From NCBI GenBank assembly GCA_947034885.2, contig OX344754.2:4657001-4721000 (forward strand): a stretch of 64,000 bases of DNA. The letters are read 5' to 3'. This DNA is from Thuidium tamariscinum (lineage: Eukaryota; Streptophyta; Bryopsida; Hypnales; Thuidiaceae). The translations under genes and the position numbers were made by a program. Below are positions 17,489 through 60,241 of this stretch, one piece after another; within the stretch, counting starts at the first letter, position 1; each line of letters begins with the position of its first letter. The notes beneath the pieces are model-generated. The model ran no database searches. It saw nothing but the letters and a program-made list of their open reading frames with translations, and was not told the origin of the DNA.

Positions 17489-17780
17489 AGTTATGGGTCT
17501 CAACTTGTGGGGTGAGTGTTTTTTTCCTGAAACCAATGAAAACTTAGATTTCATCTGTGTCCAGAAAAAAATGAGAAAAGGAAGAAAAAAACTCCATTTG
17601 TTTAAATAAAAATTATTTTTTTTTAAAAAAGTGGATTTTATTCCAAAGAGGAGAAAACAACTGAAGCACGCCATTTACAAGTGATGGGTGTGGAAGGTTT
17701 GGTCTGACTGGGAAACGAATGGGGGCAGAGCCGGGAGCATCCTTGGGGCACAAAACTTTAAGAACCAACACCGGGAGGGG

Positions 17781-19110: not shown

Positions 19111-19285
19111 GACATGGCTTTCCTCTTTGGCAAAATTTGCTAAATCTATAAGAATCTAACCATTCTAGCTTTGTACTTCTTAAAATTGGTATGTATAGTG
19201 AGGGCATCGAGGAGGACATTAGTAAAAGAAAACATTGATTTCAAGGAGGGATTATTTCAAGCTTCAAAGGGGGGAAAGAATTTAA

Positions 19286-19592
19286 CCTTTAGAGGACAAA
19301 ACTGCCTTCTTTGGCATCATAGCGATTTTGGGCAGCTCACTATGGATGGAGGGTTTGTTTTTCTTTGAAATTTTGACACAACGTGTGCCCAAGGAGTAGC
19401 TTTAAGGCCCAACAATTTTCATAATTTTTTAACCATGAGGTCAAAAGCTATGAAAATTGTTGGGCCTTAAAGCTACTCCTTGGGCACACGTATTGTGTCA
19501 AAATTTCAAAGATAAATAAATAAAAACTCAATCCATAGTGAGCTGCCCAAAATCACTATGATGCCAAAAAAGGTAGTTTTGTCCTCTAGGGG
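19286..19592. mobile_element. Fold-back element flanked by TTAA (arms of about 140 bp)
   Basis: Flanked by TTAA at 19282-19285 and 19593-19596. The left arm (CCTTTAGAGGACAAAACTG, TTGGGCAGCTCACTATGGAT, AGCTTTAAGGCCCAACAATT) is repeated inverted on the right with few mismatches. The short loop is near 19425-19445. The arms come from the end of the 0.93-kb TTAA family, so this is a head-to-head remnant of two such ends. Confidence 0.8.
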
Positions 19593-19850
19593 TTAACCTC
19601 TAAAGGACCAAGTTGCATTTTTTTGGCAACATAGAGATTTGGAGATGATCACTATGAATGGAATTTTTATTAGTTTTCTTTGAAATTTTTACACAATACG
19701 TGGACAAGGTTCTTTAATGCCCAACAATTTTCATAACTTTTGGCTACATGGTTAGAAAGATTGTTGTATTATATACATGTTTTTTTCCATTAGGGCAATC
19801 TAGTTAAATAAGAAAATCATTTTTTTAAAACAAAAATTTAGAATTTGTTT

Positions 19851-19965
<115 letters not shown>

Positions 19966-20005
19966 AAAGTTTTGAATCATTTCATTTTGATTAATGAGAT
20001 GAAAG

Positions 20006-20245
20006 CAACGATGCTAATATGTGAGCATGAAGATGTGAACATGTGAGCCTTGATTATGTATATAAGTAGATATACATCAACCATTGATGGTGATTATGAC
20101 GTAAACACCTATAATGTAGGTATTTACAACATAGTTGCACTATAATTATAAAAAACTTCAATATTATAGACACCTATACTATAGATATGTAGTCTTCTAA
20201 GCTCATGGGCTTACACTTTTAGGCTCATATATTAGCACCCCTCAT
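20006..20245. mobile_element. hAT-like MITE (TGCTAATATGTGAGC termini), copy 1
   Basis: ATGCTAATATGTGAGCATG at the left and GGCTCATATATTAGCA at the right are inverted. ATGAAAG flanks both sides (19999-20005 and 20246-20252). The host element in other copies reads GAGATGAAAGTTATGA here, which is the empty site. Confidence 0.85.
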
Positions 20246-20952
20246 ATGAAAGTTATGAAGAGTTTTAGCTTACATGCAATTATGGATTCCAATAGTAAAA
20301 TAAACTTTGAAGTCTTTTATTTAACTCAAATTTCAATACCCAATATTTCAAAATAGAATATAGATTGTTTATTACAACATTACAATTATTGGGCTTGGCA
20401 TATTTTAATTCTATTATTACATTCTTAATAATTTGGTAATTGAAACATTACCTAATTATTTCTACTTACCATCTTTTTCACACTTGTAATTCTACAATTC
20501 CAAATGATCAACAATTTTTCAAACATGTTGCCAACTTGCTTAAAAGAATGAATGCAAAAACCATCATCAACATGGATAATGTTTAATACAAATGTGACCT
20601 TGTGAAGCAAAGCTCCCCTTCTTTTTGCAAAAAAGATTTTCGTCAATTCAAACGCTAATATCCCACATTCCACATGATGGAAATTTCTTGAGTCTTTTTT
20701 ACATCCTTTCAAAATAGAGTACTATAAGTTCTTATAGTTATATATTTCCTAAAATTTCATTTTTCCTAAAATGTCATACATATATTAGAAATGACAATAT
20801 TTGAGCATTTTTGGTGAGAACATAGTTAAAAAAATTTAGAGGTTTAGTTGACTTGCACAATGTTATGTGAAAATGTCCATGCTTGTTTATTTTGAACTCA
20901 ACAACTTATTTTCTATCAATACAATAGAATTCCCAAAAAACATGTTTGTACT

Positions 20953-21488: not shown

Positions 21489-22040
21489 CTTACTAGAAGA
21501 GGGTATTCGCTTAACAAATTTTCCATTCAAAGAGAATGAGAAGAATTTGGACTATGATTTTATTTGAAAAGCAAATTAGTTTTGCAATGATGAAATTCTT
21601 GTAACATAGTTTCAATCTTCTATATTTTTATAGTTGTAAATGTACAATAAACATAATGACAAGAAGTAGAAGACTTGGGTTATCTATAGTGGAGATTGAG
21701 ATTCAACTTGGGCTAGGTTGTAAGTTCAATTTTATATGCTAAGTCATCTCAATCCTTGTATTTATTGAATTTTAAAATCTACAATTGGATATAGTTATCT
21801 TTCATGCATCCATTCAAAATTGGATTTATTACCAAAGTAATAATGAATTAGTTCTAATGGGTCATTCAAAACCATTGATTCTCACTCTATATATATGAAT
21901 TTATTATCTATTATTTATCAAAGATTATATATCTTCTATGAATTGTATAATTACCAAAAATAATTATGGAAATATGAAAATATTGTAGATTTTTGAAAAT
22001 AAGAAAAAAAAATTTATATCAAACAAAAAATATGCTTTAA

Positions 22041-22963
22041 CCCCTAAAGGACTGAGGCATTTTCTGGCTTGAAAACCACTCAAAACTGCCATGTTTGCTA
22101 CTTCCTCCCAAAAAAAACAAAATTTTTTTTTTATTAGAATCTAACCGTAGGATCTTGTAAATTATTTGTCTGAGATCATATGGTAAAAATTTCATGAAGT
22201 TTGACGGTACCGATTGGAAGATATTAGCATTCAAAGTTGGAAAAAAAAGTTTTTTTGAACTCTGACTTGCAATTTCAGATGACTTTGATTGCCATTTGTT
22301 GAATTTTTTTGCACTATGGACCATGAAGTTAAAATTTATTATGTTGAACATTTGAGTTGGGAATTAGGGAAAAAAATTTCAAAAAACTACTACTTGATTT
22401 TCATTCATTAAAAAATTGTTAAGTAGAAGTAGGTCCAAGATTGAACAAAACACTAAGTTGTTAATAACTTTAAGATGGAATTGAAAAACCATGATCCCAA
22501 CGGTGAGCTTGTTCTTGCAAACATCCTAAACCCTATCAAAAAAGAAAATTTGAAAAATTTGAAAAATTGCATTCAAAAATGAATTCTATAAGTTATTTTC
22601 TGAAGAAGGTGCTTAGATTGCCCAAAATTCAAGATTGTCCATAACTTTCTCATTATTAGTCCAAATAAAATGAAACAAAGCTTCAGATGTAGAAAAAAAC
22701 AAAATCTTCAAGAAAAAAAATAAAAAATAAAAAAATAATTTTTTTTGTGGTTTTTTTTTTCTGCCCGGCGAATTGCTTTTTGGACATAGAATGGCATAAC
22801 TTTTGCTTCCAAGCACCAATTGAAATAAAAATTATATTTTTGGAAAGCTAATCTGATTTCCTATCTTCAAAAAACAATTCAAAAAATAATATAAAAAATT
22901 CAAGTCACACAAGCCTGCCCGAAATTCCAAGTGTCCCCCGAGGGGACTTCAATCCTTTAGGGG
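22041..22963. mobile_element. 0.93-kb TTAA family, copy a
   Basis: TTAA at 22037-22040 and 22964-22967 flank CCCCTAAAGGACT...AATCCTTTAGGGG. It is non-coding; the open frames inside are short and contain T-runs. This is the most diverged complete copy. Confidence 0.85.
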
Positions 22964-22967
22964 TTAA

Positions 22968-24370
22968 ATACTTATGTGTATATTATAGTGGTTTAAAACA
23001 TCATACAAAAAATCAATTTTCATATCAATCTATATACTTAAATATAATTATAGGCTTTCAACTTAAAAACTATTCAAAAAATAATAATTAAGGAAAAACA
23101 TTATTCAAGTTTTTAAAAAGTTTTCAAGAAAAATAGACAATAGATTCAACTAGATATGATAATTTTATAAATTAAAAAATAAAATAAAATTCTTTTAATT
23201 TTATAAGTTTGATATAAAGGAGGAAAATCCTTCAAATTCATCTTGAATATCAAAATAAGTTCTAAGAATAAAAAGTCTTATTCAAGTTCTAAAATATTCT
23301 TGAATGGATATTCCAAGGGAATTTAAACAAATCTCATACAAATTCAAAAAAGTAAACTAGTTGGTGAGTATATATTATTCATTCCATAGTTGACTCATGG
23401 CAAGTCCCTAAGACTTGGTTTTGATAGAATTGTTGACTAGAAAGTATTTTGAATTTTTTTTAGGAATGTTTCATTAAACTGACCCCACATCTACAATGGC
23501 TTGCCAAGTACCACATTTAGGTTGCAAAGTCAAAGTAGTATTCTTTGTTCACTTTTGCATACTTTGACCAAAGAAATTTTGGACAAACAATTGAAGATGC
23601 ATACCTTGCTTGAAAGTGACTTTTGATTCTCCCTTGGATTGCCTATGAAGCAAGAAAAAGATTTTCATTTGATAGTCAAAACATTGCTCACAACAAAACG
23701 AATAAACATCATTAATCCTCTATCACTGTCCACATTTTTTCATTCATCAAAAAGATGGTTGGTTTGGCATTAGCTAGTATTGGAGGATGATCTACTTGCT
23801 AATATACATTTTGATAGTAGACCTTATTTGCACAAAGGTGAACAAAGCCCATTACCACCAACCTTCTCAATTCCACCTTCACTTACGAGTAGTGTAAGTT
23901 TTCCCTCTAACTAATGTACCCCATGAGTACATGAAGCCAAAATTGAGAAAGGTGTGTTGGTTCATCTTGTGTGGCTATTTGTGTCACTTCATGGCCACTG
24001 TGTATAGTTATCAATGTATCTAGAACATACATTTAAAAGTTTAGTTTCTTTTTTCTTCTTCTCTTAAACAAATATAACAATCAAAAGTTCAAATTACACA
24101 ATAGTAATTGATAAGTTGACATCATTGCAATAGATAAACAATGGAATTAATCATAAAGTGGGTGCAATGCCAAACCAAGAATTGGAGTTTGGAGAACACA
24201 TAGGACTAGAGTCCTTGGAGCACCAAAATTGAGGTCCAAATAGAGTTTGGAGCCATGTTTCCTTACTACTATTCTCAATTATATTCCCCTTTGACACCCT
24301 TGTTTCAAACTAGGGTTTCCTTTATGATTAACTCTACCTCAACAGAGTTTGTTTTTTCTCAACAAAGACC
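22968..24370. other. AT-rich intergenic sequence
   Basis: I see no gene, no inverted-repeat element with clear ends, and no tandem repeat here. It is the longest stretch in the left half without an identifiable repeat. Confidence 0.5.
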
Positions 24371-24375
24371 CTGAA

Positions 24376-24607
24376 CCCTTGAACGTTGACACAGACACCC
24401 AATGTCCGATGGATGATAGAGAATCTTTTACTATGGGATGAAAGAACAACTATTCATCCTTGAAATTTTGTGTGGAAATAAGAGATCGTCTCTGGTACTT
24501 TGACTTGCAATAAACACTTCTGGAATTTTTTGAACAATTGATTCCCATGATATCGTTGATTCCCAAACTGTATGATTTCACAGTCACCAGGGTTTGTCCT
24601 TCCATGG
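24376..24607. mobile_element. 0.23-kb TTAA MITE, copy s1
   Basis: CCCTTGAACGTTGACAC at the left after TGAA (a mutated TTAA), and CCTTCCATGG-TTAA at the right. The inside has GGATGATAGAGAATCTTT, CAACTATTCATCCTTG and TTCCCATGATATCG, shared with the other five copies. It is followed at 24649-24730 by a 31-bp sequence (ACTGAAAGAATCCTAGGC) present twice. Confidence 0.7.
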
Positions 24608-25074
24608 TTAAGTTTGTTTTTTCTGTCGTCCCACCCGGCATAATTTTCACTGAAAGAATCCTAGGCTGTTTTGAAATTGCTGTCCCACTGTAAATCCCAC
24701 TGAAAGAATCCTAGGCTTGTTTTGAAATTGGTGAAGTCAATGTTCTGGTTTCTTGAGTGAGGCGCAGTCATGCACTTGATCCCTCTGAAGATGCCTCCTG
24801 GTCATGTCAAGGACATGCCCTCCTTTGAGACCCTTGAATCATGGAACTGGTGGAATTAAGTTAGAAAGGATTTTCTTGCCCAAAATGTCCTCTCATCCAT
24901 TTCATTGGTGTCCCCAAAAAATAATAATAATAATGGTCATCTCACTCAATCTTTGTGTGGGTAGGTCTGGAGCTTTTTTCTTTTCTTGGAATGCAGTACT
25001 TGGTATCATGGATTAAGATGGTGGTTTTAGATAAGGGGCGACTTTTGGGGTGCTTATCATATCTAATAATCTTA

Positions 25075-25499
25075 GAGCATCCCCATGGGTTGCGCAATGG
25101 AGAGGCTCAGGCAAGGCTACCTTGCAGAGCTCAAGTAATGTGGCCGTCCACTTGCTGTTCCACTAGCCTATAGGAAGACGGTGACAAGACACGGGGATGG
25201 AGACTTAGCGCAGGAACCAAGATTGTAAGTGTGCCATGTCGTCACGGAAAGCTCACAGTGCCTCCTATATGCAAAAAAAGTCTTCAATGCTATGCTTTAT
25301 ACATAGAAGACTGTGTCGTCTTACATACCGCACCTCTGCCAGCGTCCACCATTTGGCCGTCTCTTGGCCATTTTTGGTTGTGGCCGGTTATTTTTTCCAG
25401 CTCATAGTGCCTCCTGTGGGGCAAGCACTGTGGCCAGGCATGGTCATTTGCAGTGTTTGCGTCGCTCCCTGAGGCCCTATGGGGATACTCTTAATCCTT
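25075..25499. mobile_element. GAGCATCCCCATG element with a 17-bp flanking direct repeat
   Basis: GAGCATCCCCATGGG at the left pairs with CCCTATGGGGATACTC at the right. CATATCTAATAATCTTA lies at 25058-25074 and again at 25500-25516. It is richer in GC than its flanks. No complete coding frame. Confidence 0.75.
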
Positions 25500-26174
25500 C
25501 ATATCTAATAATCTTAACCTTGTAAGGACGGGCTGGTCTTCGTGAAAATCATGCTTTTTGAAACTATAGGAATCATCTACTTTAAAAAAAACTCAAAAAT
25601 ATTCATTGAAGACCAAACCACTATTCATGTCCTAACCTATTTGCACAAAGTTTCAAGAATGAATAATTGCAATTCTATCTTACATATAAGAATTCTCTAT
25701 CATCCATTGGACATGTAGTGTTTGTAGCGACGTCACTAGGTTAAATGTAATGAAAGTGTATTTCTACAAGGAATGAAGTCTTTCATTGATTGAATTTCAG
25801 AGATTGGCTTCAGAATTTGTTGTAAGGATATTATGACATTGGAATATGTTGAGATGAAGATTTGACAAGAGTGCGAGAAGAAACCATAAAAATAAACTAA
25901 TTTTAAAAAATTAAATTAAAGTATTTTTTTGGTTGCACAAATGAACAAACCATAGAATCTTTTATCTATGCCTTTACAACATAGCTAGTACACCTATCCC
26001 ACCAAACTCATCATTCACTTTGGTCAAAAATCCATGAATAGGGACATGCACAAATCTTATCAATTCATTAATCACCTCTACAAATCATAAATAAATAAAT
26101 AAACAAAAAAATAAATAAAACATTAGATTCATCTACCCGCCCTCCAAAAATCAAAAACACTTTGATACAATACA

Positions 26175-26558
26175 ATAGGATAGCCGACCCATTTCCAATC
26201 ACTTAAGCAATTATGCATATTTAGAGTGCAAGTTTTTATATTGTAAATTTTTTCCCATGTATAAAAATAAAGTTTGGAAGGATAGCATATTTTTCTACAA
26301 TTTTATTATACAAAACATAGTTACTATGAATTTTTTAGTAGAGGATTCTTTTTGACCTATAATGGTGATATAGACCTTTCTATTTGTGACTATAGGCTGG
26401 TTGCAAAATCGATCAAAGGCTGGTTGCATTTATGAGAGCCTCACAACCAATCTTAATGTGCCACAATTGCTTTGAGAGCTACACCACAACTTCGCGGAAA
26501 TAAAACAAACTATAGATTGGAAATGAGGAGGTGATAAAAAATGGGTCGGCTGTCTTAT
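26175..26558. mobile_element. MITE, copy 2 of the GTAGCCGACCCATTT family
   Basis: ATAGCCGACCCATTTCCAAT at the left pairs with ATGGGTCGGCTGTC at the right. The whole element is the inverse of 14977-15350. Confidence 0.8.
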
Positions 26559-26763
26559 ATGAAATACACATGGAATTATATATTTGGGTATGATATAAAA
26601 AATATAGATGGATTATGTAAAATATTGAAATGTTTTAGGGTTTGGGTACAAATATAGGATGTGATTTTTAATCCTTGATATCCATTGGAATCTAGCATAT
26701 GCAAGAAAAGTATAGATATGGAAATAATGAAAATGTATTGTATGATAATTTGTTTATTATTAA

Positions 26764-28611
26764 CCCCTACATGATCAATATTTTGAGCAAGTCACTACAA
26801 ATGGAGGTTTTACTAATTTTTTCTTAAATTTTTTCACACAATATGAAGACAAGGAAATCCTTTATTGCATAAAAATTTTCATAACTTTAATTACATGGTT
26901 AACCCCTAAATGTTTTTGACTATGTTTTGCCAAAAACACTCCAAAACTGCCACTTCTAGTACAAGACCAAAATATTTTTTTAAAAACATCTTAACACAAA
27001 TGTAACCATAGGATCTTATAGTAAACTAGTTTGAAAATATGTGGAAAAAATTTCAGAAATTTCCACCGTATAGATTGCAAGATAATAGTGTTTGAATTGT
27101 CAAAAATGCTTTTTTTGTCCCTGCGAAAATCCGGGCAGCTGCACTTCAGTAGCTCACTTTTGTATGAAAAAAAGTCCAAAATGGTTGTTACTCTTTTAAT
27201 TCATTCTTTTAGTCAAGTTAGCTACATGCCTAAAAAATTTCAAATCATTTGGAGTTGTATAACATGTAGAAAACAACTAGTAAGTAGAAAGAGGTAGAAA
27301 ATGAATCAAAATATTAAAATAGTAATAATTAATTTTTGAAATTGAAAATTTCCAATCCCAATGGTTGTAATGTTGTAATAGACAATCTTCACCTAATGTG
27401 TTTATTTTTTTTCAAAAATATTAAAAATTGAGTAAAATAATGGACTTCAAAGTTTATTTTGGAGTAGAGATTCCATAACTTCCCACAAACTACCTTCAAA
27501 CTAAAACTCCCATAACTTTCATTTCACAAATCAAAATGGAATAATTAAAAGCTTTCCAAGTAGATAAAAATCTAAAGAACGAATTTCAAATTTCAAATTT
27601 TAGAAAAAGTGATTTTTGAAGAAGTTTTTTCAGCTGCCCAGGCTGCCCGCCGAGCAAAACAAATCACATATCATGCAATAACTTTTTATTCATGTTGTCA
27701 AAAGTTATGAAAATTGTTGGGCCTTAAAGCTACTCCTCGGACACACGTTGTGTGAAAATTTCAAAGAAAAAAAATAAAAACTCCATTCATAGTGAGCTGC
27801 CCAAAATTGCTATGTTGCCAAAAAACGCAGTTTGGGCGTTTAGGGGTTAAAAGGTTATTGTATGACATCTAATTTTTCTCTTCAACTTAAAAATCTAGGC
27901 AAATAAAGGAAATTTTTTTTTGTAACAAAAATTTGAAATTGATTTTCTAGATTTATATATACATTGAAAGCTTTGAATCATTCCGTCTTGATTAATGAGA
28001 TGAAAGTTATGATGAGTTTTAGTTGGCAAGCACTTATCATTTTTTTACTTTAAAAAAAACTTTAAAGTTCTTTATTTACCTAAATTTTCAATATTTTTTG
28101 AAAAAATAAAATTATTGAATATAGATTGTTTATTACAACATTACAACCATGGAGTTAGTATTTTTCGATTCAATAACTCGATTCTAAACAATTTAGTATT
28201 TTGAAGTGTTTTCTACTTTTTTCTACTTACTAATTTTTTTCTATATCTTCCACAATTCCAAATGATTTGAAATTTTTTGAGCATGTATCCAACTTACCTT
28301 GCCAAATGAATCCAAAGAAGTACCACCAATATAGATACTTTTTTTATAGAAATTTGAGCTTACAAAGTACAGATGCTTGTTTTTTGTAAGGCCCCTAAAA
28401 GGATTTCTATCAATTCAATTGTTAATATCCTACAATCAGTATAGTGGAATTTTTTGAATTTTTTGAATCTTCTCAAACCAACATACTACAAGATCCTACA
28501 ATTACATGTATCCAAAGATGTTGATTTTTTTGTAAAATTTGATACTTGTACTAAGAATGATAGTTTTGAAACATTTTTTTGGGTATAAATATACTCAAGC
28601 AACTTAGGGGC
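26764..28611. mobile_element. 0.93-kb TTAA family, outer copy, split by a nested copy
   Basis: TTAA at 26760-26763 starts CCCCTACATGATC; the right end ACTTAGGGGC meets TTAA at 28612-28615. A second family member sits inside it at 26903-27846. Removing that and one TTAA leaves about 900 bp, the family length. The flanks of the insertion read ACATGG-TTAA...TTAA-AAGGTTATTG; the uninterrupted sequence in another copy (near 33474) is ACATGGTTAAAAAGTTATTG. Confidence 0.9.
26903..27846. mobile_element. 0.93-kb TTAA family, copy b (nested)
   Basis: 944 bp from CCCCTAAATG to CGTTTAGGGG with TTAA on both sides (26899-26902, 27847-27850). It is in the inverse orientation to its host copy. It contains the family's GC motifs AATCCGGGCAGCTGCACTTC and GGCTGCCCGCCGAGC. 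No long reading frame. Confidence 0.92.
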
Positions 28612-28615
28612 TTAA

Positions 28616-28837
28616 CCCCTGAACGACACACATGCCATATTTTGGTTGATGAACAAGACATAATCTTTCTGTATAGGATAGAAATGCAATTATTCATCTT
28701 TAAAATTAGGGGAAGAAAAGGGAAGATTTTATACAGTGCTTTGACTTCCAACAAGAGCTTTTAAATTTATTGGAACTAATGATTCCCATGGTATCAAAAT
28801 TCATGATTTCCATGGCCACCGACTCGTCGTTTAGGGG
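28616..28837. mobile_element. 0.23-kb TTAA MITE, copy s2
   Basis: TTAA-CCCCTGAACGACAC... to GACTCGTCGTTTAGGGG-TTAA, 222 bp. It shares its left TTAA with the preceding 0.93-kb copy and its right TTAA with the following one, so three elements are joined at single TTAA sites. Confidence 0.9.
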
Positions 28838-28841
28838 TTAA

Positions 28842-29772
28842 CCCCTAAAGGACCAAATTGCGTTCTTTGGCAACATAGTGATTTTGGGCAGCTCACTACA
28901 AATGGAGTTTTTATTCTTCTCCTTTGAAATTTTCACACAATATGCGCCCAAGGAGTAGTTTTGAGGTCCAACAAGATTCATAACATTTGACTACATAGTC
29001 AAAAAGTTATTGCATGATATGTGATTTCCTTTGATCTCTGGGCAGCCTGGGCAGATAAAAAAAAACTTCTTTAAAAATAATTTTTTGAAAAAATGAAAAA
29101 TTTTATTTAGAATTTTGTGTATGCAAGAATCTTTGAATCATTCCATTTGGATTAGTGAGTCAAAAGTTATGAGGAGGTTTAGTTTGTGGCTAGTTACAGA
29201 ATTCTTACACTACAAAAAAAAAGTTTGAAATCCTTTATTTAATTCAATTTTTAATATTTTTGGATAAAAATAATTTAAATAGGTGAAGATTGTTTATTAC
29301 AACATTTTAACCGTTGGGATCAGAATTTTTCAATTCCATAAATAAATTGTTTATAATTTAGTGTTTTGGCTCATTTTCTACTTCTTTGTACTTGTTATTT
29401 TTTTCCTCTATGTTTTACAACTCCAGATGATTTGAATTTTTTTTTGCATATATCCAACTTCCCTTTAAGATTGAATCCAGAGAGTAACCACCAATTTGAA
29501 CTTTTTTACATACAAATGTAACCTTGTGAAGTGCAACTGCCTGGATTTCCAAAGTGGTAAAAAAAGGATTTTCGTCACTTCAAACACTAATATCTTGCAA
29601 TCTACACGGCGAAAATTGCTGAAATTTTTTCCACATCTTTTTAAACTTATACTCTAAAAGATCCTACAGTTACTTTTGTCCAAAATGTTTTTTTCTTGAA
29701 ATTTGATAGTTGTCTAATAAATGACAGTTTTGAAGCGATTTTGGTAAAAACATAGTCAAAAACCTTTATGGG
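28842..29772. mobile_element. 0.93-kb TTAA family, copy c
   Basis: 931 bp, CCCCTAAAGGACCAAATTGC at the left to CAAAAACCTTTATGGG at the right, TTAA at 28838-28841 and 29773-29776. Uninterrupted, and a good reference copy for the family. Confidence 0.9.
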
Positions 29773-30245
29773 TTAAGTGAGAGGATGTATGGTTGAAGTG
29801 AATTCCCTCACCATCTGGCCCACAAACAAAAAGAACACCCTTTCATGTAAGTTTCACTTCTCTTGAGGATGGGGTCTCTTTTCCAAAAGTCCAAAGCAAT
29901 TGTATGGTTTGATTTGATTGTTGTTGACCTATGCACCTCTCGCGGTAGTCACTTGCAGAATGCAGACAAAAAACCCCAAATCAATCAATGACATACACTT
30001 TTGAATTTTGCCGGCATTGATACCCAATTCCAAACTGCAGTACAGTACAGTTGATATTATAAAACTGAGTGGAAAGTTATGCAGTTTTTTGGTGTTATTT
30101 ATAAACAAATGTTATGCAGTTTTTTCAAACCCAGATGAGGTGAACACCAACTTCTTTGTCCTTGCTACTGGCTGTTTCTGTAGGCTTGTACTTTACATAA
30201 CATATCAGCTCTTACATTGGATTCTCACCAAGGCAGTGTTTTATA

Positions 30246-30945
30246 AGAGCATCCCCATGCACGAGACGCTGAACACCCCCCATCGAGCCTTCTGCGGAGG
30301 CTGCTTTATTCTGCCCAGGGGTGAATGTAAAAAAAAAGCCCCCTATTTTGTGCCGTCTCAATTGTTATTATCATCAACACCCCTGGCTAATTTGGATCCC
30401 CTGATTCCAAATATGTACTCAAAATTTGCAAAAAAATTTATGCGTGGTTGATAAAAAGTTCCTGCGTTTTCCCCAGGGGTAAAACGGGGGGTAAAGCAGT
30501 CTCCGCAGAAGGCTCGATGGGGGGTGTTTAGCGTCTCGCATCCCCCATGCCTGCATGCCAAAGGGCTGCAAATTGATAATGTGAAGTGTTTGCCCTGTGA
30601 AACTGCCCCATGCGAGGCCCTCCAAACAAAATATTTACCCAACAAAAACTTCAAAGTAACAATCACACTCAATTGTTGTGTTTCTTCCCCGTGGCTCACT
30701 AAATCTTGATTTCCTCAATCTGGCACATTCTCAAAGAATTTTCAGCCATTCGGAGCTTGGAGGCCCAACACTTGGCGTGACACCTTGCACCTGGCTTGAT
30801 AAAGGTAGTTTTTTTGACTTGGGAGATGTGTTTAGTGAGTCAATTAAGAGTGTAGGCATGGGGCACGAAGCACTTTCACCAACCATGAACCCATGTCAAA
30901 CCCCATTTGACGCCCCTGCTTGAAGGCTCTAGTACGGGGATGCTA
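30246..30945. mobile_element. GAGCATCCCCATG element, first of an inverted pair, split by an insertion
   Basis: Left end AGAGCATCCCCATGC at 30246-30260, right end ACGGGGATGCT near 30945. Its body (CTGCAAATTGATAATGTGAAG, GTGGCTCACTAAATCTTGA, AGTGTAGGCATGGGGCACG) is repeated in inverse orientation in the next element. A fold-back element is inserted 15 bp inside the left end. Confidence 0.8.
30261..30540. mobile_element. Fold-back element with about 45-bp inverted arms
   Basis: CGAGACGCTGAACACCCCCC...GAGCCTTCTGCGGAGGCTGC pairs with GCAGTCTCCGCAGAAGGCTC...GTGTTTAGCGTCTCG. The flanks GCATCCCC-ATGC are duplicated on both sides, which fits insertion into the terminus of the GAGCATC element. The inside resembles the MITE at 18498. 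Confidence 0.88.
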
Positions 30946-31361
30946 TAAGAGCATCCTCATGCCAAACCCCTCAAGTAGGGGTACCAAATGGGTTTTGACA
31001 TAGGCTGATGGCTAATGAAGGTGCTTCATGTCCCATACCTACACTCTTAATTTACTCACTAAACACATCTTCCAAGCCAAAGAATTACTTTTATGAAGCC
31101 AAATGAAAGATGTTAGGCCAAGTTTTGGGCTTCCAAGTTCCGAATGGATGAACATTCCCTAACAGTGTGCCATAATTGTGAAAATCAAGATATAGTGAGC
31201 CACGAGGAACAAACACAAAAGTTCAGTGCCATTGTTACTTTGAAGTGTTTGCTGGCTATATTTTTTGTTTGGAGTGTTTGGCATGGGGTAATTTCACAAG
31301 GCAAATATGCTACATTATCATTTTTCAGCCCTTTGGTGTGCATGCACGGGGTTGCTCTAAG
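30946..31361. mobile_element. GAGCATCCCCATG element, second of the inverted pair
   Basis: Starts TAAGAGCATCCTCATGCC next to the end of the first element and ends CACGGGGTTGCTCTAA. It is a reverse-complement copy of the neighbour's body. Confidence 0.8.
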
Positions 31362-31517
31362 AGAAAACATCATGTGTCTTGACTATCCGGTTTTGTTTCT
31401 ATTTTAAAAACTTTATAGTTTACTTTTTAGAGGAAAAGTTCAGGGGAACATGATAAATAAAAATTGGATAGATTATTCGGCAATGCATCAAACCCTAACC
31501 CCCAAAGGTTTTTGACT

Positions 31518-31852
31518 AAGGTAAGAGGTCCTATAATGGACCATCTAAGGGCTACAACAGAATTTCAGGGAGGTAAAATTTCTAGAAATATTTTTCAATA
31601 AATTTTCCTTGAAAGAAAAGTAGAATTGACATTTAACCTAAGTCGTTTCATATTTTTCTAAGCTTTGTGGAATTAGTTATCAAATTTTGAAGTTGCAAGG
31701 ACATAGGGCTCTAGAATGGTGTCCTAGCTAAAATGTACATTGTTAGTACATTGCTGAAGGCTATGAAAAAGCAATATGTACTAATATTGTACATTTAAGG
31801 TAGGGCACCATTTTGGAGCCCGCTCCATTTAAGAACCTTCTACCTTAAGGGA
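31518..31852. mobile_element. M330 MITE copy
   Basis: GGTAAGAGGTCCTATAATGG at the left, CTTCTACCTTAA at the right, with CATCTAAGGGCTACAACAG and AAGTCGTTTCATATTTTTC inside. It sits in a degraded 0.93-kb-family end (CCCCCAAAGGTTTTTGACTA). Confidence 0.8.
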
Positions 31853-32189
31853 GAAACATCCAATATTGCACCTTCACCTTGCATTGGACTCTAGATTCAT
31901 CCAAAACCATCCCTAGATTGCAGTTAATTTGTTTGCCAAATGTTTGACTCTAATTTACTGATGCATATTAAAGACACATACCCAAATCTGATTCCAGGCT
32001 CATTAATGATTTTAGCAATGTTCAAATTTGGGGGCATCTATTGAATAGTTTCAATGGTTTAGGGATCCAACACTTTGGAAAATCATAGAAATTACATATG
32101 GTGTCCAATTTTTTTTATGTTCATGATTTTCACTTTCTAATATTAGAAAAATATTATTTAAGAAAAAGATCCCTCCAACTATGCTGAAT

Positions 32190-33316
32190 TCCTTATTTGG
32201 ATGATTTTGGGTGTTTCCACCATATGCTTTCACCAAAACCACTTTAAAACTATCATTTTTAGGACAACTACCAAATTTTAAGAAAAAAATATTTTTGGAC
32301 AAATGTAACCATAGTGAGGATCTTTTAGTACACTAATTTGAAAAGATGTGGAAAAAGTTTCAGAAATTTTCACTGTGTAAATTACAAGATATTAGTGTTT
32401 GAAGTGAGAGAAATCATTTTTTACCACCATGAAAATCCAAGCAGCTCCATTTTAGAAGGCCTTATTTGTTTGGAAAAATGTCCAGAATGATTGTAACTAT
32501 TAGGATTCATTCTTCAAGTCAAGTTGGCTACATGCTTGAAAATTTTCAAATCATTTGGAATCATACAACATATAGGAAAAAAATAGTAAGTAGAAAGAAA
32601 TAGAAAATGATTCAAAATACTAAATTATTAAAAATTTATTTATAGATTTTGAAAAATCCAATTCCAATGGTTGTAATGTTTGGTTAAACAATCTACACCC
32701 AATGTTTTTATTTTTTTTCAAAAATATTAAAAATTGAATTAAATAAATAATTTCAAACTTTCTTTTGTAGTGTAGACTCTAGAGATTCTATAACTAGCCA
32801 CTATCTACCATAAACTAAAAATCCTCATATTTTTGGACTCATTGATAAAAATGGAATGAATCAAAGCTTTTCACTTAGATAAAAATTGAATTAAATAAAT
32901 AATTTCAAACTTTCTTTTGTAGTGTAGACTCTTGAGATTCTATAACTAGCCACCATCTACCACAAACTAAAAATCCTCATATTTTTGGACTCATTGATAA
33001 AAATGGAATGAATCAAAGCTTTCCACTTAGATAAAAATCTAATTAACCAATTTCAAATTTTTATTTATTACAAAAATAAATTTTCAAGAAGTTTTTTTTT
33101 CTACCCAGATTGCCCACTGAGCAATGAAAATTACATATCATACAATAACTTTTGAACCATGTAGTCAAAAAGTTATGAAAATTGTTGGGCCTTAAAGCTA
33201 CACCTAGGAAAAATGTTGTGTGAAAATTTCAAAGGAAAAAAAAATAAAAACTCCATTCATAGGAACCTACCCAAAATCGCTAAGTTGCCAAAAAATGCAC
33301 TTTGGTTCTTTAGGGA
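32190..33316. mobile_element. Degraded 0.93-kb TTAA family copy with an internal tandem duplication
   Basis: The body follows the family order (CAAAACCACTTTAAAACTATC, TTTCAGAAATTTTCACTG, AGCAGCTCCATTTTAGAAGG) and ends TTCTTTAGGGA-TTAA at 33317-33320, shared with the next copy. It contains a 152-bp tandem duplication (32729-32880 and 32881-33032). The left end is lost in older rearrangements. Confidence 0.65.
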
Positions 33317-33320
33317 TTAA

Positions 33321-35171
33321 CCCCTAAAGGACCAAAGTGCCTTTTTGGCAACATAGAAATTTTGGGTAGGTACGTGTGACTAGAGATTTTCATATTTTGG
33401 GACAAAAATTTAATAGAAGGTGTGGACAAGGAATATGTTTAAAGCCCAACAAATTTTTGTGACTTTTGACTACATGGTTAAAAAGTTATTGCATAATGTG
33501 TTGTTTCTTTCTCAACTCGGGTAGTTCGAGCAAGTCATAAAAAATCACATTTTTTCGAAATAAAAATTTGAAATTGGTTTCATAGATTTATATATATGTG
33601 GAAATATTTGAATTATTCCATTTGGATTAATGAGTCAATAGTTATAAAGAATTTTAGTTTGAGGATAGTTATGGATTCTCAAACTTTGAAGTCGTTTATT
33701 TGACTCAATTTTCAATATTTTTGGAAAAAAATAAAAACATTAGATGTAGATTGTTTATTAAAACATTTGAAACATTGGAATTGGTAAGCTTTAATTCCAA
33801 AAATAAATTCTTAACAATATAGTATTTTGAATCATTTTCTACTTCTTTCTACTTACTATTTTTTTTGTAGATGTTGTACAATTCCAAATGATTTGAAAAT
33901 TTTCAAGAATGTAACCGATTTGAATTGAAGAATGAATCCAAAGAGTTACAACCATTTTAGACATTTTTCATACAAATGTGGCCGTTTGAAGTGCAGCTGC
34001 CTAGATTTTTGCAGTGGGAAAGAATGATTTTTGTAACTTCAAACACTAATATCTTGCAATCTTCATGGTGGAATTTTTTGAAATTTTTTATACATGCTCT
34101 GAAACTAGTGCACTAAAAGATCCTACAATTACATTATTCCAAAAATATTTTCTTTTAACCCCTAAACCCCTAACAACGTTTTCACCAAAAAAAATACTCC
34201 AAAACTGCCATTTCTAATACAAGAGCAATTTTTTTTTAAAAACACATTTTTGACTCATGTAACCGTAGGATCTTTTAGTAAGGTGGTTTGTAAACATGTG
34301 GAAAAAATTTCAGAAATTTCCACCATGTAGATTGCAAGATATAAGCATTTGAATTGACAAAAACTGTTTTTTTATCCCTGCGAAAATCCGGGCAGCTGCA
34401 CTTCACAAGGTCACATTTGTGTGAAAAAAAATTCAAAATGGTGGTTACTCTTTGGATTCATACTTCAATGCAAGTTGGCTACATTCTCAAAAAATTTCAA
34501 ACCATTTGGAGTTGTACAACATATAGGAAAAAATAAGTAAGTAGAAAGAAGTAAAAAATGAGCCAAAATACTAAATTGTGAACATTTTATTCATGGAATT
34601 GAAAATTTTCAATCCCAATGGTTAAAATGTTGAAATAAACAATCTACACCTTTTTTTTAAATTTTTTTCCAAAAATATGAAAAATTGAATTAAATGAAGA
34701 ATTTCAAACTTTTTTTGTACTGTGGAGATTCTGTAACTAGCCGTAAACTACCCCAAACTCAAAATCTTCATAACTTTTGATTCAATGGATTGATTCAAAG
34801 CTTCACATGTTTGTATAAACCTAAAGAACCAATTTGAAATTTCACTTTTCAAAAAAAAGTTTTTTTGGAAAAGTTTTTTCAGCTGCCCGGGCTGCCCGCC
34901 GAGCAAACAAAGTGACATATCATGCCATAACTTTTTATCCACAAAGTCAAAAGTTATGAAAATTGTTGGGACTTAAAGCTACTCCTCGGACACACATTGT
35001 ATCAAAATTTCAAAGAAAAAAAATAAAAACTCCATCCGTAGTGAGCTACCCAAAAAATCTATAATCTCAAAAAACGTTGTTCAGGGGTTTAGGGGTTAAA
35101 ATTTGGTAGCTATCCTAGAAATGGCAGTTTTGGAGTGGTTTGCTGGAAACATTGTTGCGGTCCTTTAGGGG
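33321..35171. mobile_element. 0.93-kb TTAA family, copy d, split by a nested copy
   Basis: CCCCTAAAGGACC at 33321 and GGTCCTTTAGGGG at 35171 form a 13-bp perfect TIR, with TTAA at 33317-33320 and 35172-35175. Copy e is inserted inside it. Without e and one TTAA the length is about 910 bp. Confidence 0.92.
34159..35095. mobile_element. 0.93-kb TTAA family, copy e (nested)
   Basis: 937 bp, starts CCCCTAAACCCCTAACAACG and ends CGTTGTTCAGGGGTTTAGGG plus G, so the TIR is about 20 bp. TTAA at 34155-34158 and 35096-35099. The flanks join to TTTTCTTTAAAATTTGGTAG, the host sequence. No coding capacity. Confidence 0.93.
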
Positions 35172-35175
35172 TTAA

Positions 35176-35402
35176 AACAATGCGAAGGTTGTTTTTTGGT
35201 CGATGAATAAGAAAGCATTTTGTTTATATGGGACAAAAGTGCTATTATTCATCCTTGGAATTAGGGATAGAAAGGGAAGATTCTCTTCAATACTTTGACT
35301 TCCAAAGTGCACTTTTGAACTTTTTTAAATCAATGATTTCCTTGATTTCAAAAAGCATTATTTTTAGGGTACCCTTACTTCATTTAGGGATCAAGGTAAC
35401 TA
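35176..35402. mobile_element. 0.23-kb TTAA MITE, copy s6 (degraded)
   Basis: Follows the TTAA at 35172-35175. It shares GTCGATGAATAAGAAAGCAT, TATTATTCATCCTTGGAATT and GATTTCCTTGATTTC with the family. The right end is decayed. Confidence 0.55.
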
Positions 35403-36939: not shown

Positions 36940-37400
36940 AAGTTATAGACAAATTTCATGAAAATGACATATCTTACAATAATTTTTTTACCATGTAGTC
37001 AAAAGTTATAAAAATTGTTGGACCTTAAAGCTACTCCATGGGTACATGTTTTGTGAAAATTTTAAATAATAAATAAAAAACAAAAATTACATTTGAAGTG
37101 AACTCCCTAAAATTGCTATATTGCCAAAAAAATGTAGGTTGGGCATTTAGAAGTTAAAATCAATTATACACCTCTATGGGAGAAACATTTTTAAAACCTA
37201 ACTTTGACCTTTCATAACTTTTGCGTATGGTATCTAAATGTCACATTCTTCAATGCATTGGAACTTCTTTTTACTTGCCAACAAGAGGATATGATAATTT
37301 GACCTACATTTTTATAGTAATTAGGCACAATATCAATTTGTAGTATTTTTGGATGTACCTAACTTATATAAGCTTCACTTGGTAGTACATAGCAATTGGA
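36940..37400. mobile_element. Fragments of a TTAA element and of the GGTGGGTACACC MITE
   Basis: 36940-37155 is the end of a 0.93-kb-family copy (AAAATTGTTGGACCTTAAAG, ending GGGCATTTAGAAG-TTAA). 37160-37400 shares CATAACTTTTGCGTATGG and TTTACTTGCCAACAAGAG with the MITE at 18216, and ends GGATGTACCTAACTTA. Confidence 0.6.
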
Positions 37401-38862
37401 ATGAAAAATGTGAGGAAATTATAAGGTAAAACAACCCAATGTGGTGAGAATTAGGAGTTTGGCCTCATACCATTGGTGAAGTTTTAAAATTATTTCCCAC
37501 ATGAAGACAAGTGTAAGAAACAACAAGAGCAATTGGAATTATAACTCATTTTTTGACAAAGTTTGGGATTTTAATGAATTTTTGAAGTGTTCAACCAATT
37601 ATAGCCCCTAAGAATTTGTAGACCACTCCAAAACCAATAAAATTTGCATCCATTATGCATGTCTTACACACCTAAGTAGTCACAATAATTTATAATGAGG
37701 AAGGCCTAAGAAGTCACTTCAGGAACTAAAAGACAATTCCATTCTTGGTATACAAACGTAGAAGATCTTGTATGAAAATTTAGGACATAGATATGAATAT
37801 AATTGATTAGGTCAACAATTGAAAAAACACAAGAGTAGTCAACCTACTAAGGCAAAAAAGCACAGAGAACTTTTGTTCATATATTATTCATTGCTATTTT
37901 CTGTACATAAGGGGAAGTTTTTGCTCATATCTTATCCACTGCTACTCTCTAAATGTGGAAGGAAGTTTTTGCTCTTGTATTATCCAGTATCCACTACTAC
38001 TTTGTATGCAAGGAGGAAAGTTTTGCTCATCTATTGTTTTACTACTACTCTCTCTGTACAAAGCAAAATTTTGCTCATGTTCCATTTTGCTACTAAGGTA
38101 GCAGCATCTATAACCGTCATTACACCCATAACTGGCAAGTAGAGGGCCCTTAAATTGTCTTCAAGAGTACCTTGAAACAATCATCCATTCTTAATGTTGA
38201 TTGGTAAGCTTTGAATTTTTTAGATTTTGTTGTGAGAATCAAGGTAGATTTACTAGAGTGTGGTATAGGGTGCCCTAGTCAGTTCTACTTTGAAAATTCA
38301 TAGAAATTAGATGCCTTGTCCAAAAAATTTATTTTATTTTTTGAAAATTCATGATTTTCAGTTGCTAATACTGTGAAAATATTTTTTCTAGAAAAAGAGA
38401 CCTTTAACTCTACTGAATTGCTTATTTCGACAGTTATGGATGTTGCTACCTTACTCTTTCTTTGCAGACAATGTCTCCAAGCTTCACATCCTCTCAATCA
38501 AACTATCTTCCTTCTGCTACTCATGAAATTTGAATTGTGGGTCACCAATGCAACATATGTGATCCTTGTGCAAGTACAAATACAACAAGCCCACCCAATC
38601 AAGAAAGTCAACCATTGACTATGAATACTACATCGAAACAAGTTTGATTGTTCCAACACCGTGAGGAATGCCCAACAAGGGGCTGGAAAGGTCCTTTGGA
38701 AAGGGTTGCCTTATGAGTTTGAGTGGTCCTCCCGGATTGATATTGATTCGATGTCACTGATGAAGTTGAAGTTGACAAACGCAGATACGGGTACATGAAG
38801 AAAACCCCAGCAAGCTCCATCATGTGCACTTTGAAAAACTCAGAAGCCACCTTCCTTTCAAC

Positions 38863-39090
38863 CCTGAAATGACAAGCCGGTGACCGTGAAAATCATGAAT
38901 TTTGATACTGTGGGAATCATTGGTTCAAAAAAAATTCAATTTTCTTCATGTACCCGTTGGAAGTCAAAGCACTCGAGAAGATCTTTCTTTTTTGCCCCTA
39001 ATTCCAAGAATGAATAGTTGCATTTTTGATCTACACAAAGAGATTCTCTTCCATTCATTGACCAAAAAATGGTCTTTGTGTCGTTTAGGG
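38863..39090. mobile_element. 0.23-kb TTAA MITE, copy s3
   Basis: TTCA-ACCCTGAAATGACAAG at the left (mutated TTAA), TGTCGTTTAGGG-TTAA at the right (TTAA 39091-39094). It shares GTGGGAATCATTGGTTC and GGAAGTCAAAGCAC with copy s5. Confidence 0.75.
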
Positions 39091-39466: not shown

Positions 39467-39688
39467 CCCTTGAAGGACAGACCATAGTGACCGTGAATCA
39501 TCCATTTTGATATCGTGGGAGGCAATAGGTTGAAAAAAATCTCAAAGCACTCATTAGAAGTCAAAGCTCTCTAAAAGATCTCCCCTTTTCACTCAAAATT
39601 CCAAGGATGAATAGTTGCATTTTTGTAATACACACGAAGATTCTTTATCATTCATTGGACACTAGATGTTAGTGTCAACGTTCAAGGG
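39467..39688. mobile_element. 0.23-kb TTAA MITE, copy s4
   Basis: Begins near TTTA-GCCCTTGAAGGACAG and ends GTCAACGTTCAAGGG-TTAA (39689-39692). It carries ATATCGTGGGAGGCAATAGG and AAGGATGAATAGTTGCA of the family. Confidence 0.7.
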
Positions 39689-40828: not shown

Positions 40829-42144
40829 CTCTTTAAAGAAATAGGGATGGGATTAGACTAACTATATGACACTTGAGAGTTTACTACATTAGGGAAGGTA
40901 ATTGCATTAATCACATTTGAACTTGGTCCACTGCACGACTATGCATTGAATATTACCTTAAGAATATCATTACTTTAGAAAGTATTACTCGAGAGAGATT
41001 CTACTAAATTCAACTTTTGGCAATCACTACAAAGATAGTTGGTGTAAGAATACTCTTAGATTCATTAGATGAGATTTGAGGCCTCCGGAAAATTGTGGGT
41101 TCTCAAATTGCAGGAATGTTGAAATTGTCATGGGAACGCATTTCACTATCGCGGGAATACAGAAACTATATAGTCCAACGTGATTGAGAATTCGAGATCG
41201 TGCCATGTCATTGAATTTTTTTTTTGAATTTTTTTCACATTTCAAAATCCAATTTTTTGAATTTTTTGGTATTTATTGTCTAGTATTTTGGGAACTATTT
41301 CAAGAACAAGCCCAAAACAACTTTCTCAAGGTCTCAAATCTCATCTAATGATTGAAAAATAATTAGTTTTTCTATCTTATGAGAAAGTTTCAAAAAGTTG
41401 CACCAAATATTAAGGTCATAGGAACTTAGTCGAAATCCATTTTGTCCCTAGAGGGGACAATGGTCCTTTAGAAGTTAACATCTTGAAGACAATTACATTA
41501 AAAAAATACAATAAATTATAAACTATAAACCCTAAATTCTAATATCCAAAATCTTGAATGTAAAAAAACTAGCTTATTTTCCTTAATTTCATGAACTTTC
41601 TTGCATTAGAATACATCATTCATGACGGAGGGAGTATAACATAATATATCCCATTGAATTGCTTTTTCAATCATTTGCATCTTTCATGTGAGTGTTATTT
41701 GAGAATTATAATGCTCGGATACAACACATTTGTATAGATGACACATATAGAGATGGCTTCAATAGATGATACATTTGTAGCTTTTAGTCACATAAGAGAT
41801 AAATTCATGAAGAAAAAGAGAAGTGCCATATATTAGGTAATCTAATGCAACGTGAGGTCAAACTCTTGACATGTATTGCATACAACTCATGTACCTTCTA
41901 TGCCAAATATATAAAATTCACTATGCAATTTAATTAGATTCCTAAAGTGTAAAATTTAGATAATAATATTGTATCCAAAACAATCTTTCTTCCTCTATTC
42001 TTTATTTTTAATTATATTGGAGCATTAGAATGCTTTTAAGCTCCGATGGATGTACTTTTTAATTACAATGCCTTGGAAATTTTAAGATTTTGAAAACTCA
42101 TTGCTTATTTTCTTGAAGGTTAAACTTTTTCTTTTATTAGAAGA

Positions 42145-44350: not shown

Positions 44351-44571
44351 CCCCTAAACGACGAGCCGGTGGCTGTGGAATTGAGGAATTTTGATACCGT
44401 GGGAATCATTGGTTCAAAAAAATCTAAAAACACACGTTGGAAGTCAAAGCACTATAGAAGATCTTCCTTTTCCACCCCTAATTCCGAGGATGAATGATTG
44501 CAATTCTATCCTACATAGAAAGATTCCCTGAAGTTCATCGACCAGAAAATGGCTTGGGCGTCGTTCAACGG
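44351..44571. mobile_element. 0.23-kb TTAA MITE, copy s5
   Basis: 221 bp with TTAA at 44347-44350 and 44572-44575. Left CCCCTAAACGACGAGCC, right GGGCGTCGTTCAACGG. It lies just upstream of the PR-10 pseudogene (in that gene's orientation). Confidence 0.88.
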
Positions 44572-59328: not shown

Positions 59329-60241
59329 CCCCTAAAGGACTAGCTTGCCAAATTTGGCAACATTTAGCAATTTTGGGCAGGTATGTGTGAATGGAGATTT
59401 CCATATTTTGAGCCCAAATTTTAATAGAAGGTGGAGAGGAGGAATATCTTTCATATGTACAAAAATCAAGACATTTGGAAATACACGTCAAAAGATATGG
59501 TCTAATATGTTATTTTTCTTTGTAATTGGGCAATTCAAGAAAATTGGAAAAAATTGCTTTATCCAAAAACATAAACTTGAAATTAGTTTTCTTCATTTGT
59601 GTGTGTATAGAAATCTTTCAATCATTCCATTTTGATCAATGAGTTAAAAGTTGCGGGTAGTTATAGATTCTCTATTCTAAAATAAACTTTGAAGTCCTTT
59701 ATTTGACTCAATTTTCAATATTTAAAAAAAAACAAAAAATTACAGGATGAAATTTGTTTGTTACAACATTCCAACCATTGGGATCAACATTTTTTAATTC
59801 CACAATTAAATTCTTAACAATTTTATATTTTCAATCATTTGCTACTTCTTCTTACCTACTATTTTTTCCCTATATGTTGTACAATTCTAAACAACTTGAA
59901 ATTTTTTAAGCAAGTACCCTACTTGGCCTCAACAATGACTCCAAAGAGGTACAATCATTTAGGAAAAAATTTCATATGATAGTCGCCGTATGAAGTGCAA
60001 CTACCCCATTTTCCACAAGGTGTAAAAAATGATTCTTGAGCATTCAAACACTAATATCTTGCAATCTTCATGGTGAAAAACTCTGGAATTTTTTACACAT
60101 GTTTCAAACCAATTTACTACAAGCCCCTATGGTTGCAAACCTCATAAAATGTTTACAAAAATAAAAATTGGTATTGATATTAGAAATGGCAGTTTTGACA
60201 ATTTTTCAAGTGAACACAGTCAAAGAACTTAACTTAAGAGG
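59329..60241. mobile_element. 0.93-kb TTAA family, copy f
   Basis: 913 bp, TTAA at 59325-59328 and 60242-60245. Starts CCCCTAAAGGACTAGCTTGC and ends CACAGTCAAAGAACTTAAC..AGAGG. Same order of internal blocks as copy c. Confidence 0.88.

What the first reader, a model, noticed from the sequence alone, without database searches (positions are those of the whole stretch)
22037..35175. A land-plant family of 0.93-kb TTAA-flanked elements with CCCCTAAAGGACC termini, with readable empty sites
Copies at 22041, 26764, 26903, 28842, 33321, 34159 (and 59329, 19597 outside this span) all start CCCCTA and have TTAA on both sides. Twice one copy sits inside another (26903-27846 and 34159-35095). In both cases removing the insert and one TTAA restores the family sequence and the family length (about 900-910 bp). 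This is direct evidence for TTAA target duplication. Known families with TTAA targets are piggyBac, whose ends begin CCC, and Kolobok. As far as I know both are rare or poorly described in land plants. The elements are non-coding, so an autonomous partner must exist or have existed elsewhere in the genome.
Basis: partly seen in the sequence, partly recalled or inferred. Interest (0 to 1): 0.85.

Follow-up and report, generated by a model that had tools for sequence, protein, structure and literature searches.

The report
Plant piggyBac transposons and short derivatives
The short repeats in this plant DNA are cut-down copies of piggyBac jumping genes, a kind described mainly from animals, fungi and protists, and the same genome also holds full-length, apparently intact copies that moved recently and could drive them.

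Summary
The window carries at least two, probably three, related sets of non-coding elements with TTAA flanks and CCCCTAAAGGACC-type ends. In both nested cases, joining the outer flanks on one TTAA gives 900- and 910-bp family members. In the window's 363-Mb genome, TTAACCCCTAAAGGACC occurs 4,780 times, reversed control 0; a 22-base family end is preceded by TTAA in 373 of 385 cases. The genome holds piggyBac transposase genes: 116 scored of 659 candidates, all listed rows over Pfam's cut-off. Four full-length copies are 99.94-100% identical at different sites. Window element 22041-22963 matches a 5,135-bp transposase-bearing piggyBac flush at both ends, at 65% and 69%. A CCCCTAAAGGACC end lies 3.4-9 kb upstream of a piggyBac transposase, on the right strand, at 16 of 40 places; chance 0.04. 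So these are piggyBac MITEs with transposase-bearing relatives in the same genome; direct parents of the window copies were not found. Extra lead: a conserved second ORF upstream of the transposase in 16 of 20 loci. Species unnamed.

The parts
22041..22963 (+). F3 element, 923 bp; TTAA at 22037-22040 and 22964-22967; subterminal hairpin at the right end
   Evidence: Flush homology at both ends to the L057 piggyBac: 1-517 at 65%, 721-923 at 69%; read
26764..28611 (+). F1 element (outer copy) interrupted by 26903-27846; 900 bp without the insert and one TTAA; extra C before the right TTAA
26903..27846 (-). F1 element (inner copy), 944 bp, inserted in a TTAA of the outer copy; TTAA on both sides
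28616..28837 (.). F2 element, 222 bp, TTAA on both sides, CCCCT ends; not tied to a piggyBac terminus
   Evidence: Read by eye; one search gave no match at element ends
28842..29772 (+). F1 element, 931 bp, TTAA on both sides; shares its left TTAA with the F2 element
32223..33316 (-). F1 element with an internal 152-bp tandem duplication; one end lost, TTAA at 33317-33320
33321..35171 (+). F1 element (outer copy) interrupted by 34159-35095; 910 bp without the insert and one TTAA; TTAA on both sides
34159..35095 (-). F1 element (inner copy), 937 bp, TTAA on both sides
19286..19592 (.). Fold-back element: two inverted copies of the F1 CCCCTAAAGGACC-side end; TTAA at 19282-19285 and 19593-19596
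19597..20842 (+). F1 element with a 108-bp AT run and further extra sequence; starts CCTCTA; far end decayed, no TTAA there
59329..60241 (+). F1 element, TTAA on both sides, far end decayed (AGAGG before TTAA 60242-60245)
36962..37153 (-). Half copy of F1 (CCCCTAAAGGACC-side end, decayed) ending at TTAA 37154-37157
41387..41474 (+). F3 end with hairpin, ending at TTAA 41475-41478; rest of the element not delimited
   Evidence: (88 bp at 65%)
44351..44571 (+). F2 element, 221 bp, TTAA on both sides
   Evidence: Read by eye
39467..39688 (+). F2-like element, 222 bp, left flank TTAG, right TTAA
   Evidence: Read by eye
38862..39090 (+). F2-like element, 229 bp, left flank TCAA, right TTAA
   Evidence: Read by eye

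Best explanation
The F1 and F3 elements are non-autonomous members (MITEs) of the piggyBac superfamily in a plant nuclear genome: internally deleted relatives of ~5-kb piggyBac transposons of the same genome. A piggyBac transposase recognises the 13-bp CCCCTAAAGGACC ends plus asymmetric subterminal sequence, cuts the element out and inserts it at TTAA, which ends up on both sides. Shown by sequence: TTAA target, two nested empty sites, homology of both element ends to transposase-bearing elements, and transposase genes with open frames and the conserved aspartates. Inferred from the known family: that this transposase moves the short elements, and the cut-and-paste chemistry.
For: TTAACCCCTAAAGGACC 4,780 times, reversed control 0; TTAA before a 22-base family end in 373 of 385; outermost T replaced in 118 places against 540 with the element's first C replaced, so the outer T is part of the target and TA or TAA alone does not explain it. 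Two nested empty sites. PF13843 transposases: 116 scored of 659 candidates, best E 5.7e-80, 0 of 14 control genomes. Window 22041-22963 collinear and flush with both termini of the L057 piggyBac. F1-type CCCCTAAAGGACC end upstream of a transposase on the right strand at 16 of 40 places, chance 0.04, none on the other strand within 10 kb; 15 of 39 without the query place. Opposite end from L064: 17 of 40, chance 0.026; 16 of 39 without itself. Four full-length copies 99.94-100% identical with identity stopping at TTAA and different flanks. D662, D767, D883 invariant in the three transposases aligned, at the positions of the corresponding motifs in piggyBat; piggyBac D268/D346/D447 are catalytic (PMC2533014, passages).
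Against: No transposition was observed. L057's own ends read CCCCTAAATGCCC and CCCCTAAGTTCCC, not CCCCTAAAGGACC. End identities between window copies and the autonomous elements are only 58-69%, so direct parents of the window copies were not found. For window 28842 the far-end match to L057 stops about 40 bp short of the terminus. F2 has no transposase link.
Confidence: 0.95

Rival explanations
1. Kolobok or Sola3 MITEs, which are also said to use TTAA targets (recalled), with piggyBac present only by coincidence.
For: TTAA target alone fits.
Against: Both element ends are homologous to transposase-bearing piggyBacs, and the exact end lies at fixed spacing upstream of piggyBac transposases. 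No Kolobok or Sola3 search was made.
Confidence: 0.02
2. Tc1/mariner (Stowaway, TA) or PIF/Harbinger (Tourist, TTA/TAA) MITEs with a sequence preference around a shorter target; TTAA is palindromic, so the nested sites alone cannot tell.
For: The two nested empty sites read the same under a TA or TTAA duplication (by reasoning).
Against: The outermost T is kept in 4,780 of 4,898 ends, more often than the element's own first base (4,780 of 5,320); the linked transposase is piggyBac.
Confidence: 0.01
3. The elements prefer to insert at the TTAA beside a sibling element (self-targeting), which explains the cluster.
For: Four TTAAs in the window are shared by two elements (19593, 28612, 28838, 33317); simulation of 12-16 insertions expects 0.3-0.6, probability of 4 or more 0.0001-0.0015. 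In L061 an autonomous copy sits at the TTAA of an F1 copy.
Against: Genome-wide, the exact palindrome of two perfect ends around one TTAA occurs at one place; my rough chance estimate is 2-4, from about 2,390 elements and 1.4-2.4 million TTAAs. The window finding was itself picked for its cluster.
Confidence: 0.1

Closest known systems
piggyBac superfamily transposons (Trichoplusia ni piggyBac, bat piggyBat)
   Same: TTAA target, short CCC-starting inverted ends, PF13843 transposase with the conserved aspartates (PMC2533014 and PMC10813416 passages)
   Different: Host is a plant; elements 4.9-5.6 kb against 2.07-3.47 kb in beetles, where each intact element has a single 500-725-aa transposase ORF (PMC12732532 passages); here frames of about 770-1,090 aa and, in 16 of 20 loci, a relative of a second ORF upstream
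piggyBac-derived MITEs of corals (CMITEs)
   Same: Short TTAA elements whose ends are shared with autonomous piggyBacs of the same genome; an empty allele was shown there (PMC2872659, passages)
piggyBac labels in land-plant repeat annotation
   Same: PiggyBac named among seven MITE superfamilies of angiosperms (PMC10004981, passage); 1,230 elements in a table of the Ceratopteris genome paper (PMC6890710, passage)
   Different: The passages I saw give no transposase, ends or activity; PMC12732532 calls plant occurrences occasional and names red algae (passage)

Membership tests
piggyBac superfamily | TTAA target site on both sides | tested here: met
   373 of 385 for a 22-base end; two nested empty sites; L059-L062 identity stops at TTAA
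piggyBac superfamily | Short terminal inverted repeats with a CC[C/T]T or CCC start (PMC2872659 and PMC10813416, passages) | tested here: met
   13-bp CCCCTAAAGGACC at both ends of 18 fetched pairs, chosen for it; 16 transposase-bearing elements with CCC starts at both ends, found by a scan that required TTAA and, for two of them, a relaxed score
piggyBac superfamily | DDE_Tnp_1_7 (PF13843) transposase with three catalytic aspartates, in the autonomous element | tested here: met
   D662, D767, D883 invariant in three aligned proteins; role of D268/D346/D447 from PMC2533014 passages
piggyBac superfamily (non-autonomous member) | Both ends of the short element homologous to the termini of a transposase-bearing piggyBac | tested here: met
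   F3, window 22041, against L057; F1: L006 flush at both ends but weak at one (58%, E 0.005), window 28842 flush at one end; F1-type end upstream of transposases
piggyBac superfamily | Precise excision and transposition by its transposase | not testable with these tools
   Needs an assay or orthologous loci; relatives' genomes are not held
F2 as piggyBac MITE | Ends homologous to a transposase-bearing piggyBac | tested here: inconclusive
   Matches of three F2 copies to fetched piggyBac loci are not at element termini
Kolobok / Sola3 | Kolobok or Sola3 transposase linked to these ends | not tested
   No model was searched; the linked transposase found is piggyBac
Stowaway (TA) / Tourist (TTA, TAA) | 2- or 3-bp target duplication | tested here: not met
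   Outermost T of TTAA kept in 4,780 of 4,898 ends

The most novel reading that the evidence does not exclude
This plant lineage carries a distinct, recently active branch of piggyBac transposons of about 5 kb with two genes: a large transposase and a second ORF (~270 aa in the two read whole, conserved over about its first 110 aa, no Pfam or PDB relative found) placed upstream on the same strand and overlapping the transposase frame. These elements feed thousands of ~0.92-kb MITEs and make piggyBac a major mobile element of a land plant. The second ORF may be a DNA-binding or regulatory partner, or a first exon spliced to the transposase.
Probability: 0.5. Interest if true: 0.78.

Novelty: new member of a known kind. 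Interest (0 to 1): 0.62.

Why it matters
piggyBac is described as widespread in animals, fungi and protists and only occasional in plants (PMC12732532, passage). Near-identical full-length copies with open transposase frames in a plant would supply a native plant piggyBac for study. They would also give a MITE-to-relative series in one genome and a test of how plants silence or tolerate TTAA transposons. The conserved extra ORF is a new piece to explain. The MITEs themselves are ordinary in kind.

Tried and rejected
One single family: rejected, since 22041 and F1 share only patches. A 7.2-kb TTAA-flanked pair (L027) was fetched as a possible autonomous element: its two ends are of F3 and F1 type, so it is probably a chance pair; it was not searched for a transposase. 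Self-targeting of sibling TTAAs: suggested by the window, not supported genome-wide. Coding remnants in the short elements: longest stop-free stretches 44-107 aa in 23 elements, taken as chance; no family search was run on them. The F1 far-end query from L006 returned 40 scored places of 4,673 candidates, all 96-100% alike; I did not compare these with the transposase list, so it gave no link, but it shows a young subfamily. F2 was not tied to any piggyBac terminus. Profile of the second ORF against PDB: 39 sequences up to E 1, best E 0.017, mostly glucocorticoid receptors, taken as chance; Pfam: three single-member hits with E 0.18 or worse. Paper searches; the one moss-genome hit for piggyBac was the word 'piggybacking'. 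Three papers asked for by DOI are not held. No structure was predicted. No search of other plant genomes was possible with these tools.
Full report
WHAT IS IN THE WINDOW. TTAACCCCTA-like sites number 26 against 4.75 expected. Self-comparison shows ~0.93-kb elements in both orientations. Aligned, they form family F1 with two different ends: one CCCCTAAAGGACCAAATTGCG..., the other CCCCTAAA... followed by TTTTTGACTATG in several copies. The eight window copies compared average 71% identity, so these particular copies are old. The copy at 22041 belongs to a second family, F3, with a subterminal hairpin at one end; the ~920-bp F3 copies fetched elsewhere are 68-99% alike (the 99% pair, L024 and L025, share their flanks and so may be one duplicated insertion). 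A third set, F2, of ~222 bp also has TTAA flanks and C-rich ends (by eye). The 23 F1 and F3 elements examined are 28-32% GC without long frames.

EMPTY SITES. The inner copies at 26903-27846 (944 bp) and 34159-35095 (937 bp) interrupt outer copies at a TTAA. With one TTAA kept, the outer copies measure 900 and 910 bp and run on when aligned with whole copies. TTAA is palindromic, so this alone cannot tell a 4-bp duplication from a shorter one.

GENOME-WIDE TEST. The window is part of a 363-Mb assembly of 19 contigs. TTAACCCCTAAAGGACC occurs 2,453 + 2,327 times; its reversed control 0. The outermost T is replaced in 118 places, while the element's own first C is replaced in 540. The 22-base F3 end occurs 385 times, 373 with TTAA; the 12 others were not examined. 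So the target is TTAA. Eighteen pairs of perfect ends on C1 were fetched: 17 span 915-934 bp including both TTAAs and one, which holds further ends, spans 1,171 bp. They were chosen for perfect ends, so their TTAAs are not an independent test. Some subfamilies are young: 40 of 40 scored places (of 4,673 candidates) match one F1 end at 96-100%.

THE TRANSPOSASE. Pfam PF13843 gives 116 scored of 659 candidates in the genome, all listed rows above the cut-off, and rings in 0 of 14 control genomes. Eleven rows have a 1,023-aa frame with no stop and scores of 269.4-269.6 bits. Of 20 loci read in detail, 16 show a TTAA-anchored pair of CCC-starting ends 4.9-5.6 kb apart around the transposase, two of them only at a relaxed score; four (L050, L056, L063, L064) did not. 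Because the scan required TTAA and C-rich starts, this is not an independent test. The four copies L059-L062 are: they are 99.94-100% identical over about 5,096 bp, the identity stops within a few bases of TTAA on both sides, and the flanks differ. In L059 the frame from ATG is 1,009 aa and matches piggyBat (E 1.1e-27) and piggyBac (E 1e-22) structures. L054 and L055 are 99.6% identical over 5,616 bp, with a 1,087-aa frame in L055. D662, D767 and D883 are invariant in the three transposases aligned and fall on the matching motifs of piggyBat.

THE LINK. Window element 22041-22963 matches the L057 piggyBac at both termini, flush: first 517 bp at 65% (convincing over about the first 300) and last 203 bp at 69%. 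F1 matches the same termini more weakly: L006 flush at both ends, 66% and 58% (the latter E 0.005); window 28842 flush at one end (60%) and about 40 bp short at the other (64%). L057's two near-copies (97%) have the same ends at TTAA with other flanks; three of their four ends were read. L057's ends are CCCCTAAATGCCC and CCCCTAAGTTCCC, not the exact motif. For the exact CCCCTAAAGGACC end, I noticed that one hit lay 3,391 bp upstream of a transposase, read it, and found it related to the F1 end: 69% to L019, 61% to window 28842. A search with that end gave 40 scored places of 1,835 candidates. Of these, 16 lie upstream of one of the 78 listed transposases on the right strand within 10 kb and none lies within 10 kb of one on the other strand; 0.04 were expected. 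Four are 100% alike (rounded) with exactly 3,391 bp spacing, three of them with 951-aa frames without stops and one with a stop. Leaving out the query place it is 15 of 39. The opposite-end query from L064 gave 17 of 40 within 6 kb, or 16 of 39 without itself, against 0.026 expected.

SECOND ORF. In 16 of 20 loci, upstream of the transposase and on its strand, lies a relative of a ~270-aa frame read in L059 and L055 (tblastn up to E 0.01; none found in L050, L056, L057, L066). Four of the 16 are the near-identical L059-L062 and two more are L054 and L055. In L059 and L055 it overlaps the transposase frame in another reading frame. The two share 24 of 78 residues, E 6e-7. Twelve aligned segments share five invariant columns. 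No Pfam match and no convincing PDB match was found. Whether it is a separate protein or a first exon is open.

HOST. A LEAFY-type domain (PF01698) is present: 6 matches over the cut-off, best E 1.6e-27, 0 of 14 controls. The sugar transporter in the window is closest, among solved structures, to Sugar transport proteins 10 and 6 (that these are Arabidopsis proteins, and that LEAFY is a plant factor, is recalled). So the host is a plant, most likely a land plant; species and group were not determined.

MECHANISM. Best reading: piggyBac transposase made by the ~5-kb copies cuts the short elements out at their CCCC ends and inserts them at TTAA. Ends, target and transposase are shown; the reaction is inferred from the known family.

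LIMITS. Direct parents of the window copies were not found. No Kolobok or Sola3 search was made. F2 is unplaced. Literature searching was limited to an open-licence library; statements on rarity in plants come from passages of PMC12732532, PMC10004981 and PMC6890710, and my searches turned up no described plant piggyBac in what I saw, which is listings and passages only.

Noticed in passing
L049-L068, e.g. L059:5321-6139 (minus) and L055:5471-6268 (minus): Conserved second ORF upstream of the piggyBac transposase, overlapping it in another frame in L059 and L055; a relative in 16 of 20 loci; no Pfam match, no convincing PDB match.
   Followed up: partly
window 19286-19592: A fold-back element: two inverted copies of a single F1 end between TTAAs, suggesting rearrangement of one terminus into a hairpin element.
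   Followed up: partly
window 19593, 28612, 28838, 33317; L061:1717: Neighbouring elements that share one TTAA; more than simulation expects in the window but only one exact palindrome genome-wide.
   Followed up: yes
window 28616-28837, 38862-39090, 39467-39688, 44351-44571, about 35176-35380: A ~222-bp set, F2, with TTAA flanks and C-rich ends, its parent unknown; the stretch after 35175 resembles it but has lost its ends (by eye).
   Followed up: partly
window 16558-17491: A tandem array with a ~160-bp unit (5.8 copies, 94% matches) and a long open frame through it.
   Followed up: no
L050 and L056: 6.6-kb stretches 99.5% identical at two places, each with a piggyBac transposase match, for which the TTAA-anchored scan found no pair of ends.
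   Followed up: no
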